NCBI GenBank assembly: GCA_017513965.1
Contig: JAFWMI010000066.1
Location: 1-41,682, forward strand
Length of the DNA: 41,682 nt
Reading direction: 5' to 3'
From: Atopobiaceae bacterium
GTDB lineage: Bacteria; Actinomycetota; Coriobacteriia; Coriobacteriales; Atopobiaceae
Shown here: piece by piece, positions 1 through 28,808 of the stretch
How the letters are laid out: the number at the start of each line of letters is the position of its first letter
Numbering within the stretch: position 1 is the first letter of the stretch
Notes under the pieces: model-generated
What the model was told of the DNA's origin: nothing
What the model saw: only the letters and a program-made list of their open reading frames with translations
Databases searched by the model: none
Translations under genes and position numbers: made by a program

Positions 1-119
1 TTATCTTGGTTAGCGAGAAATGGGCTTTTGATTCTCGCGCCCACGTTAAGGCGGTCGTGGTGCCTATGCTTCGCGCGCAGTTCTGCGAAGCAGCTGTTTG
101 AGCACGAAGCATAGGCACC
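1..119. repeat. Direct repeat, copy 1 (purH leader)
   Basis: These 119 bases are identical to 152-270 (offset 151). The copy contains a small hairpin (GCGAGAA at 13-19 with TTCTCGC at 32-38) and a larger one (arms 59-73 and 105-119, 15 bp). Inside the large loop is a nested CTGC-GAA-GCAG hairpin. Identity starts at base 1 of the window, so the repeat may extend further left, and more copies may exist outside. Confidence 0.9.
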
Positions 120-127
120 TACAAGAC

Positions 128-144
128 GCGCCGCGAAGCGGCGC
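128..144. other. GC-rich GAA-triloop hairpin between the repeats
   Basis: GCGCCGC (128-134), loop GAA, GCGGCGC (138-144) form a perfect 7-bp stem in the 32-base spacer between the two leader repeats. There is no T-run, so it is unlikely to be an intrinsic terminator. Its function is unknown. Confidence 0.6.
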
Positions 145-151
145 ACACATA

Positions 152-270
152 TTATCTTGGTTAGCGAGAAATGGGCTTTTGATTCTCGCGCCCACGTTAA
201 GGCGGTCGTGGTGCCTATGCTTCGCGCGCAGTTCTGCGAAGCAGCTGTTTGAGCACGAAGCATAGGCACC
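152..270. repeat. Direct repeat, copy 2 (purH leader)
   Basis: This second, identical copy of the 119-bp element lies directly upstream of purH. Perfect identity suggests a recent duplication, gene conversion or selection on sequence. Only here does the main hairpin extend to 21 bp, because the bases after the repeat (ACGACC, 271-276) pair with GGTCGT at 204-209. Confidence 0.9.
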
Positions 271-276
271 ACGACC
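204..276 (+). promoter_or_regulatory. Long hairpin in the purH 5' leader
   Basis: Arms 204-224 and 256-276 are perfect 21-bp complements around a 31-base loop that holds a 4-bp CTGC/GCAG hairpin with a GAA loop. The structure ends 8 bases before the Shine-Dalgarno sequence AAAGGAG (285-291). CCACG at 192-196 can also pair with CGTGG at 207-211, so two mutually exclusive folds are possible. I do not recognise a known purine or ZTP riboswitch core. A regulatory role for purH is inferred from position only. Confidence 0.45.
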
Positions 277-297
277 TCAACAACAAAGGAGCACAGC

Positions 298-1479
298 ATG
301 AACGAATTGGAACTCAAGTACGGCATGAACCCGAATCAAAAGCCTTCGCGCATCTTCATGAAGGACGGGTCCGACCTCCCCATTAAGGTGCTGCAGGGCA
401 AGCCTGGATTCATCAACTTCCTCGACGCACTCAACTCCTGGCAGCTTGTGCGCGACCTCAAGGAAGCCACGGGCCTGCCTTCTGCCGCGTCATTCAAGCA
501 CGTTTCTCCTGCCGGCGCCGCCGTCGGTACACCCCTCTCGGACATCGACCGCCAGATCTACTTTGTGGGCGACAACCTGCCCGATCCTTCCCCCATCGCC
601 TGCGCCTACATCCGTGCTCGTGGCGCCGACCGCATGAGCTCCTACGGTGACTGGGCAGCGCTGAGCGACGTGTGCGACGCCGACACCGCCGCCTATCTCA
701 AGCCCGAGGTCTCCGACGGCATTATTGCGCCCGGCTACACCGACGAGGCGCTGACCATTCTCGCTCAAAAGAAGGGCGGCAACTATAACGTGGTGCAGAT
801 CGACCCCACCTACGAGTGTGCCCCCATCGAGACCAAGGACGTGTTTGGCATCACCTTTGAGCAGGGGCACAACAACTACAAGGTGGACCGCGCGCTTGTC
901 TCCAACTTCGTAACCCAGAACAAGGACGTGCCCGACGAGGCGCTCGTCGACATGATCATCAGTCTCATCACCCTCAAGTACACGCAGTCCAACTCCGTCT
1001 GCTACGTAAAGGACGGCCAGGCAATCGGCGTGGGCGCCGGTCAGCAGAGCCGCGTGCACTGCACCCGCCTCGCCGGCAACAAGGCGGACACATGGTACCT
1101 GCGCCGCCACCCCAAGGTGCTCGGCCTCAAGTTTGTGGACGGCATTCGTCGTGCCAACCGCGACAACGCCATCGACGTGTACATCTCGGACGAGCACGAC
1201 GACGTGCTGCGCGACGGCGAGTGGCAAAAGTGGTTTGCCGAGCGCCCCGAGGTTCTAACCCGCGAGGAGAAAGCCGAGTGGATTGCCACGCAAACCGGCG
1301 TGACGGTGGGTTCCGACGCGTTCTTCCCCTTTGGCGACAACGTCGAGCGCGCGCACAAGAGTGGCGTGAGCTACATTGCCGAGCCTGGCGGCTCCATCCG
1401 CGACGACAACGTGATTGAGACGGCCGACAAGTACGGCATCGCCATGTGCTTTACCGGCATGCGCCTGTTCCACCACTAA
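298..1479 (+). CDS. purH: Stand-alone AICAR transformylase (PurH-type, no IMP cyclohydrolase domain)
   Basis: It catalyses formylation of AICAR with 10-formyl-tetrahydrofolate, the penultimate step of IMP synthesis in the cytoplasm. The 393-aa product begins with the AICARFT signature KYGMNPNQ and carries ASFKHVSPAGAA (about residues 64-75), KYTQSNSV (about 228-235) and GAGQQSRVHCTR (about 247-258), all typical of the PurH transformylase domain. Bifunctional PurH proteins are about 510-530 aa, with an N-terminal MGS-like cyclohydrolase domain. That domain is absent here, and nothing in the 297 bases upstream supplies it. Start: ATG with AAAGGAG 6 bases upstream. The last step to IMP must come from another gene outside the window. 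The gene is preceded by a duplicated structured leader and followed by a hairpin terminator. Confidence 0.92.
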   Translation: MNELELKYGMNPNQKPSRIFMKDGSDLPIKVLQGKPGFINFLDALNSWQLVRDLKEATGLPSAASFKHVSPAGAAVGTPLSDIDRQIYFVGDNLPDPSPIACAYIRARGADRMSSYGDWAALSDVCDADTAAYLKPEVSDGIIAPGYTDEALTILAQKKGGNYNVVQIDPTYECAPIETKDVFGITFEQGHNNYKVDRALVSNFVTQNKDVPDEALVDMIISLITLKYTQSNSVCYVKDGQAIGVGAGQQSRVHCTRLAGNKADTWYLRRHPKVLGLKFVDGIRRANRDNAIDVYISDEHDDVLRDGEWQKWFAERPEVLTREEKAEWIATQTGVTVGSDAFFPFGDNVERAHKSGVSYIAEPGGSIRDDNVIETADKYGIAMCFTGMRLFHH

Positions 1480-28720: not shown

Positions 28721-28808
28721 GGAGGGGTGGCAGAGTGGTTGAATGCAGCGGTCTTGAAAACCGCCGGGCCGAAAGGTCTCGAGGGTTCGAATCCCTCCTC
28801 CTCCGCCA
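28721..28808 (+). tRNA. tRNA-Ser (anticodon TGA)
   Basis: The 88-base gene has a 7-bp acceptor stem (GGAGGGG with CTCCTCC, 28721-28727 / 28098+700 i.e. 28798-28804), and the anticodon stem GCGGT/ACCGC has loop CTTGAAA, placing anticodon TGA at 28755-28757. A long variable arm is typical of serine tRNAs. The T-arm is GAGGG-TTCGAAT-CCCTC (28781-28797), followed by discriminator G and an encoded CCA (28806-28808). A copy of its last bases recurs 165 bases downstream. Confidence 0.96.

What the first reader, a model, noticed from the sequence alone, without database searches (positions are those of the whole stretch)
1..297. Duplicated 119-bp structured leader upstream of a stand-alone purH
Two perfectly identical copies, each with two hairpins, lie before purH. 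In the proximal copy the main stem grows to 21 bp and competes with an alternative CCACG/CGTGG pairing. Perfect identity over 119 bases is more than expected for drift. It could be a tandem cis-regulatory RNA responding to a purine intermediate, or a repeat family member. I see no match to the ZTP or purine riboswitch cores.
Basis: partly seen in the sequence, partly recalled or inferred. Interest (0 to 1): 0.55.

Follow-up and report, generated by a model that had tools for sequence, protein, structure and literature searches.

The report
Duplicated antisense-and-hairpin leader before purH
The repeat in front of the purine gene purH joins a short strand that can pair with purH's own early codons to a hairpin from a widespread, apparently uncatalogued family of gut and rumen bacteria, and it hints at an unusual way of controlling a gene.

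Summary
Confirmed: window 1-119 and 152-270 are identical. The window is one whole contig. Another contig ends in purO (IMP cyclohydrolase) plus a third, 98% copy, so the purO-purH gap holds at least three 151-bp units.

The unit has two main parts. Its 3' part (59-119, 204-276) is a hairpin of a dispersed family: 104 of 197 Coriobacteriales genomes sampled, 2 to 103 copies found per genome in this genus. It has a conserved cap, site-specific well-paired stems, and its TTTGAGC side lies nearer the gene boundary (40 of 44 order-wide sites). It is not purine-specific. The operon's known sensor, a ZMP/ZTP riboswitch, lies upstream of purO.

Its 5' part (13-34, 164-185) matches only purO-purH gaps in this genus (11 of 16 genomes; nowhere else at E<=1e-3). 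It is antisense to purH codons 12-18. Across 11 genomes the helix pairs in 88% of cells, and 52 of 55 synonymous third-codon positions pair (random synonymous codons: mean 41.7, 0 of 20,000 reach 52).

Best reading: a cis-acting leader-coding long-range helix with a repeat-family hairpin inside it, tandemly duplicated here and also in a relative. Ligand and effect on expression are untested.

The parts
1..119 (+). Repeat copy 1 (anti-purH strand plus hairpin E with 15-bp stem)
   Evidence: start of contig G000:C304
152..270 (+). Repeat copy 2, identical to copy 1
13..34 (+). Anti-purH strand, copy 1: GCGA (13-16), conserved bulge of the GWAAU type (17-21), antisense segment 22-34
164..185 (+). 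Anti-purH strand, copy 2
59..119 (+). Dispersed-family hairpin E, copy 1 (model hit 62-115, 65.6 bits)
204..276 (+). Dispersed-family hairpin E, copy 2, 21-bp stem ending 8 bases before the Shine-Dalgarno (model hit 213-266, 65.6 bits)
128..144 (+). Small GC hairpin GCGCCGC-GAA-GCGGCGC in the 32-nt spacer; similar hairpins seen by eye in several relatives' purO-purH gaps
285..291 (+). Shine-Dalgarno AAAGGAG of purH
   Evidence: sequence
298..1479 (+). purH, AICAR formyltransferase part only (PF01808), 393 aa
333..349 (+). Target of the anti-purH strand: purH codons 12 (third base) to 18 (first base)

Best explanation
The array is a composite intercistronic leader between purO and purH in an operon whose first gene follows a ZMP/ZTP riboswitch. 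Each 151-bp unit has three pieces. The first is a purH-specific strand, GCGA-[GWAAU]-NGGCUUYUGGUU..., that pairs in cis with purH codons 12-18, placing the Shine-Dalgarno and start codon in the closed loop. The second is a hairpin (E) of a Coriobacteriales-wide REP-like family, inside that loop. The third is a small GC hairpin. Shown by comparison: the anatomy, the dispersal of E, the covariation of E stems, and the covariation of the leader-coding helix at synonymous sites. Inferred: the helix lowers or gates purH translation, or makes an RNase III substrate, so purH can be set apart from purO; E acts as a stable structural spacer or mRNA-end hairpin. In six relatives (G012, G005, G002, G003, G015, G010, by eye) the 3' part of the strand could also pair with an upstream CCCCA.CC, so two foldings compete. 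In the window the two visible copies could split roles: the distal one pairing with purH, the proximal one folding locally. Identity of the copies is recent tandem duplication.
For: Leader-coding helix on 11 genomes: 88.2% of cells paired (slides of 1-3 columns at most 49.1%), 13 double-change cells against 3.4 shuffled, 0 of 500 shuffles reach the covariation score. Third-codon positions: 52 of 55 pair; random synonymous codons mean 41.7, sd 2.1, 0 of 20,000 reach 52; shuffling among genomes also 0 of 20,000. Cognate leader-coding duplexes beat swapped ones, p=5e-5, 9 genomes (G013 and G009 not in that test). In 16 genus genomes the strand matches only at purO-purH gaps: 11 genomes at E<=1e-3, next match elsewhere E=0.10 (nine of these leaders trained the model; 150 candidates per genome were scored). 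Full-length fold of the window: distal copy pairs with purH at mean P 0.97, proximal copy 0.016. Hairpin E. ZTP riboswitch upstream of purO: 19 of 20 sources and 8 of 13. Tandem duplication also in G010.
Against: No expression, probing or ligand data. Of 8 full-length leaders folded, the long-range helix dominates in the window (distal copy), G005, G002 and G015 but is about 0.4 in G012 and about 0.01 in G008, G011 and G003, where local folds win. In helix columns 10-21, 8 of 11 genomes have one or two mismatches, and columns 22-25 fail in 3 to 5 of 11. The tests are not corrected for phylogeny. G014 has purH and no such strand. In one search a few of 27 leaders without the strand reach -24.6 to -29.2 kcal/mol in a window search, within the range of the weaker genus leaders. 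Template-switch homogenisation of an old inverted copy of the purH start would also give covariation. That purO and purH are one transcript is inferred.
Confidence: 0.55

Rival explanations
1. Non-functional inverted copy. The 5' strand is an inverted duplicate of the purH start, kept matching by template switching between inverted repeats in a hairpin-rich region; no regulation.
For: Hairpins here do show paired changes: 13 double-paired changes and one paired deletion in 12 orthologous G003/G015 hairpins, and the purH-leader hairpin has poorly matching arms in G003 (L051) but matching arms in G015 (L222). Template-switch homogenisation of inverted repeats is an established process (abstract starts in the listing).
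Against: The GWAAU bulge stays unpaired and conserved: columns 5, 8 and 9 are invariant in 11 of 11 and column 7 in 10 of 11; homogenisation should erase it. The longest exact leader match to purH's first 90 bases falls at codon 10 or later in each of 8 genomes (which reports only the longest). Single-sided changes outnumber paired ones in the E stems: 34 breaks and 22 via G-U against 13.
Confidence: 0.2
2. REP/BIME-like DNA repeat only. The array is selfish or structural intercistronic DNA, amplified by slippage, with generic effects on mRNA stability.
For: E is dispersed and the number found varies from 2 to 103 in one genus; nesting of E within E caps, by eye; (-)(+) pairs at operon junctions; an about 190-bp E-bearing stretch present in G003 and absent in G015 at the gyrA/gyrB junction, between near-repeats CTCCTTCTA/CTCCTTCCA.
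Against: Does not explain a strand confined to purO-purH gaps that follows purH's synonymous sites. No RAYT link seen: 1 weak match (18.6 bits) in 20 of 33 Y1-transposase loci.
Confidence: 0.2
3. Tandem ligand-binding riboswitch for a purine intermediate.
For: Position before purH, tandem copies, purH-specific 5' strand.
Against: No Rfam match; the ZMP/ZTP riboswitch is upstream of purO; CCACG/CGTGG not conserved; the conserved bases of the strand are largely accounted for by pairing with purH plus a 5-nt bulge; no terminator-like site in 1-320.
Confidence: 0.04

Closest known systems
REP / BIME palindromic repeats (TnpA-REP associated)
   Same: Dispersed intergenic hairpins, both orientations, operon junctions, close to stop codons, copy number variable between relatives
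   Different: The conserved part is the cap; stems differ from site to site yet stay paired; not found beside 19 of the 20 Y1 transposase loci scanned (one weak match), several of which by eye carry other repeats
ERIC / MITE-like intergenic palindromes (recalled)
   Same: Long imperfect palindromes in intergenic DNA; one subfamily amplified in G013
   Different: Here arm sequences are often site-specific; no transposase was found, and only Y1_Tnp was looked for
Leader-coding long-range helices, e.g. the alpha-operon (S4) pseudoknot and the gnd internal complementary sequence of E. coli (recalled)
   Same: A 5' leader segment pairs with coding sequence and can gate initiation
   Different: Different gene, sequence and bulge; here the pairing strand is repeated in tandem and a dispersed repeat hairpin sits in the loop
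ZMP/ZTP riboswitch (RF01750)
   Same: Same operon (upstream of purO)
   Different: Not this element: no match in window 1-300
Candidate structured RNAs of human microbiomes (PMC8040213; passages seen)
   Same: Reports a 51-bp Collinsella candidate upstream of ribosomal protein L7/L12 and 250 palindromic candidates, 230 of them predicted terminators
   Different: Its sequences are in supplements that could not be opened, so overlap is unknown

Membership tests
ZMP/ZTP riboswitch | Covariance-model match to RF01750 | tested here: not met
   No match in 1-300 at E<=5; matches lie upstream of purO
Any Rfam 15 family | Match at gathering score | tested here: not met
   Window: only a tRNA; 13 loci, most with these hairpins: only ZMP-ZTP
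REP element | Dispersed, intergenic, palindromic, multicopy | tested here: met
REP element | Physical link with a TnpA-REP (RAYT) gene | tested here: not met
   20 of 33 Y1_Tnp matches of the genus scanned: 1 weak match, 18.6 bits, E 0.006
REP element | Conserved tetranucleotide (GTAG or CGTC) at one end | not tested
   Feature taken from passages of PMC8266576 and the title and abstract start of PMC3733652; no scan was made
Leader-coding long-range RNA helix | Covariation between leader and coding strand | tested here: met
   not phylogeny-corrected
Leader-coding long-range RNA helix | Effect of the helix on expression | not testable with these tools
   needs compensatory mutants
Riboswitch (ligand-binding leader RNA) | Direct ligand binding | not testable with these tools
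   needs in-line probing
Intrinsic terminator | GC stem followed by a U run | tested here: not met
   0 terminator-like sites in 1-320 by a simple consensus scan with loops of 3-8

The most novel reading that the evidence does not exclude
A modular Coriobacteriales leader: a gene-specific strand antisense to the downstream gene's early codons, followed by a universal E hairpin, holds the start region in a closed loop; copy number of the strand is tuned by tandem duplication. The same layout may serve other operons: four leuD leaders carry a segment complementary to leuD codons about 4-18 just 5' of E, though there the cognate pairing is not better than swaps (rank 6 of 24).
Probability: 0.25. 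Interest if true: 0.8.

Novelty: new variant of a known kind. Interest (0 to 1): 0.6.

Why it matters
It shows a leader that follows its own gene's synonymous codons, a sign of long-range cis pairing that local covariance scans are likely to miss. It also uncovers an order-wide hairpin family, without a match in Rfam 15, with site-specific yet paired stems, useful for asking whether such stems are kept by selection or by template switching. For the organism, purine flux could be set twice in one operon: by ZTP before purO and by this leader before purH.

Tried and rejected
A purine or ZTP riboswitch in the leader and a conserved CCACG/CGTGG switch were rejected. RAYT mobilisation of E: not supported on 20 of 33 loci. 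Intrinsic terminator: no site found. The 5' strand as a family-wide motif: a pattern search in 61 family genomes gave hits at about the rate of the reversed control; among them only those of G000 (C304, C185), G003:C34 and G013:C16 lie at purH. Strand-of-function test from G-T against A-C mismatches in E stems (63 against 27): not used, because the covariance model favours G-U and subfamily copies are not independent; 38 of 106 items were dropped there for poor inner pairing, and the ratio did not differ with gene direction. Antisense-to-start in other E leaders: longest exact match 7.9 against 7.3 in swaps for 18 loci (one of them, L222, is a purH leader); duplex energy -46.0 against -41.6 for 15 loci (L222 again included); leuD only a lead. 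In one search, of 27 leaders without the strand (L033, from genus genome G014, included), L058 (-29.2), L053 (-26.3), L060 (-25.7) and L061 (-24.6 kcal/mol) come close to or reach the weaker genus leaders, so duplex energy alone is not proof; that output's heading mentions shuffles, but none were run there. Palindrome correction as the main cause of paired stems: one search shows single-sided changes dominate, so it stays a rival. An empty-site search with concatenated flanks was prepared and not run. In one search the pair L346/L361 compared two different hairpins of the locus; searches use the right one.

Rows dropped: searches list 53+43 hits; the context count used 94, leaving out L277:1035 and L283:1324 (20.2 and 19.2 bits). 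Six of the 94 fall inside an ORF of my own simple gene caller and were left out of the polarity count; 77 had both flanks. Polarity holds order-wide (40 of 44) but is not significant alone in G013 (12 of 18) or in the other genus loci (10 of 15). Locus L029, which starts inside purH, was not given.

Literature: the listings showed no description of this family or leader; most subscription papers are not held, and supplements could not be opened. Papers were seen as search listings, plus found passages of PMC8040213, PMC13155455, PMC12306157 and PMC8266576; PMC3733652 was searched for six names of Coriobacteria and Actinobacteria and none occurs.

Full report
Observation. Window 1-119 and 152-270 are identical over 119 bases, spacing 151. 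The window is the whole of contig G000:C304 of a 323-contig genome. Contig C185, read in reverse, ends with an IMP cyclohydrolase gene (PF07826), a reverse-oriented hairpin, a third copy of the unit at 98%, and the 9 bases with which the window starts. The unit is therefore present at least three times between purO and purH if the two contigs are neighbours, as gene order in relatives suggests; the number cannot be fixed from a fragmented assembly. Named relatives are mostly MAGs labelled Coriobacteriaceae or Atopobiaceae, many from ruminants. purH here is the formyltransferase part only (PF01808).

Operon context. A ZMP/ZTP riboswitch lies upstream of purO in this genome and in other purO-purH loci: 8 of 13 sources (three of the 13 are unrelated loci; L027 and L028 gave none) and 19 of 20, L027 being the miss. 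Nothing in window 1-300 reaches the gathering score of any Rfam family. So the operon has a known sensor, but not at purH.

Hairpin E. The 3' part of each unit, modelled with 16 pairs and a conserved cap (R1), occurs in all 16 genomes of the genus with 2 to 103 matches at E<=0.01, 12 here; in 104 of 197 Coriobacteriales genomes and 36 of 89 genera; and in 13 of 246 genomes of a phylum sample, of which only two lie outside the order, each with one weak hit. Only a capped number of candidates per genome was scored (150, 28, 22), so copy numbers are lower bounds. The core reads [stem]-C-GC-(GC)AGTTC-[apical part]-GGACTGT-TTGA-GC-A-[stem], with a near-constant mismatch beside the GC pairs (unpaired in 49 of 52 at columns 15-105) and a covarying outer stem: 92.6% of cells paired, 242 double-change cells against 67 shuffled (on an alignment fitted to the model). 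At purH it is found in 14 of 39 loci of L027-L066 (L032 cut off at its 5' end; L029 not given) and in none of the 40 loci L067-L106, which are mostly other phyla (read).

Placement of E. By my own gene caller 88 of 94 hits are intergenic. The TTTGAGC side is nearer to a gene boundary in 62 of 77 hits with both flanks known, 40 of 44 order-wide, whether that boundary is a start or a stop. (-)(+) pairs bracket spacers, for example at leuC-leuD (L261) and nrdD-nrdG (L217), and in L027 at purO-purH. By eye, E copies sit inside the cap of other E copies in several loci. Between G003 and G015 (92.5% purH DNA identity), 12 orthologous hairpins show 13 double-paired changes and one paired deletion, but also 34 single-sided breaks, 22 changes through G-U, 17 one-sided gaps and 2 unpaired double changes. 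At some sites the stem differs wholly while the cap is kept.

The purH-specific strand. The 5' part of the unit, GCGAG-N-AAT-N-GG..., was modelled by sequence alone (R2). In 16 genomes of the genus it matches at E<=1e-3 only in the purO-purH gap, in 11 genomes: three places in this genome, two in G010, one each elsewhere. Nine of these leaders trained the model; G010 is new and G007 is nearly identical to G008. G010 carries a tandem duplication here too, spacing 174 bp, again at a contig end; whether it arose independently was not tested. The remaining genomes: G001 has no purH hit, G004 and G006 only partial purH, G014 has purH without the strand, and G009 has a diverged strand (E 0.46) that still pairs.

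Leader-coding helix. One search had already reported that 23-34 and 174-185 are perfectly complementary to 333-344, inside purH. Aligning leader strand and codons for 11 genomes gives a helix: GCGA with UCGC of codons 17-18, a conserved 5-nt bulge in the leader, then 12-16 pairs with codons 11-16. Cells paired 88.2%; sliding by 1-3 columns gives 29.5-49.1%. Five pairs change on both sides, and all five are third codon positions, of Pro12, Asn13, Gln14, Lys15 and Pro16. At these five positions 52 of 55 pairs form, 50 of them Watson-Crick; random synonymous codons drawn by purH usage give 41.7 on average and never 52 in 20,000 draws; shuffling among genomes likewise never. Cognate leader-coding duplexes are more stable than swapped ones (p=5e-5, 9 genomes). 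Relatedness is not corrected for, but codons rare in these purH genes (AAT here, AAA in G009) are followed by the leader.

Folding. With 100 bases of purH, the distal copy of the window pairs with purH at mean probability 0.97 and the proximal copy at 0.016. The seven relatives folded range from 0.999 (G002) and 0.90 (G005) through 0.69 (G015) and 0.38 (G012) to about 0.01 (G003, G008, G011). So long-range and local folds compete. By eye six of the 11 leaders hold a CCCCA.CC-like segment that could pair with the same strand.

Reading. Two kinds of thing are joined in one repeated unit: a mobile-looking, order-wide structural repeat, and a gene-specific antisense strand. I take the strand-codon helix as real (about 0.75) and its action on purH expression as likely but inferred (0.55 for the whole explanation). 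The main rival is homogenisation of an old inverted copy, disfavoured by the conserved unpaired bulge.

Noticed in passing
L261, L262, L264, L269 (leuC-leuD gap): Segment just 5' of hairpin E is complementary to leuD codons about 4-18 (-34 to -47 kcal/mol), but cognate pairing is not better than swaps.
   Followed up: partly
L211, L214-L216, L329, L350: By eye, hairpin E sits inside the cap of another E (Russian-doll palindromes), with 8-base near-repeats GCGAAGCG/GCGCAGCG at the junctions of L350.
   Followed up: partly
L231, L239-L242 (Y1 transposase genes): RAYT-like genes of the genus carry, by eye, their own flanking repeats, different from E.
   Followed up: no
L346 against L361 (gyrA/gyrB junction): About 190 bp with a reverse E is present in G003 and absent in G015, between near-repeats CTCCTTCTA/CTCCTTCCA.
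   Followed up: partly
L030, L031 (purH leaders without E): Some relatives have in place of E another palindrome that contains GGGGACGGTTCC.
   Followed up: no
window 28721-28805: tRNA gene, the only Rfam match at gathering score in the window.
   Followed up: no
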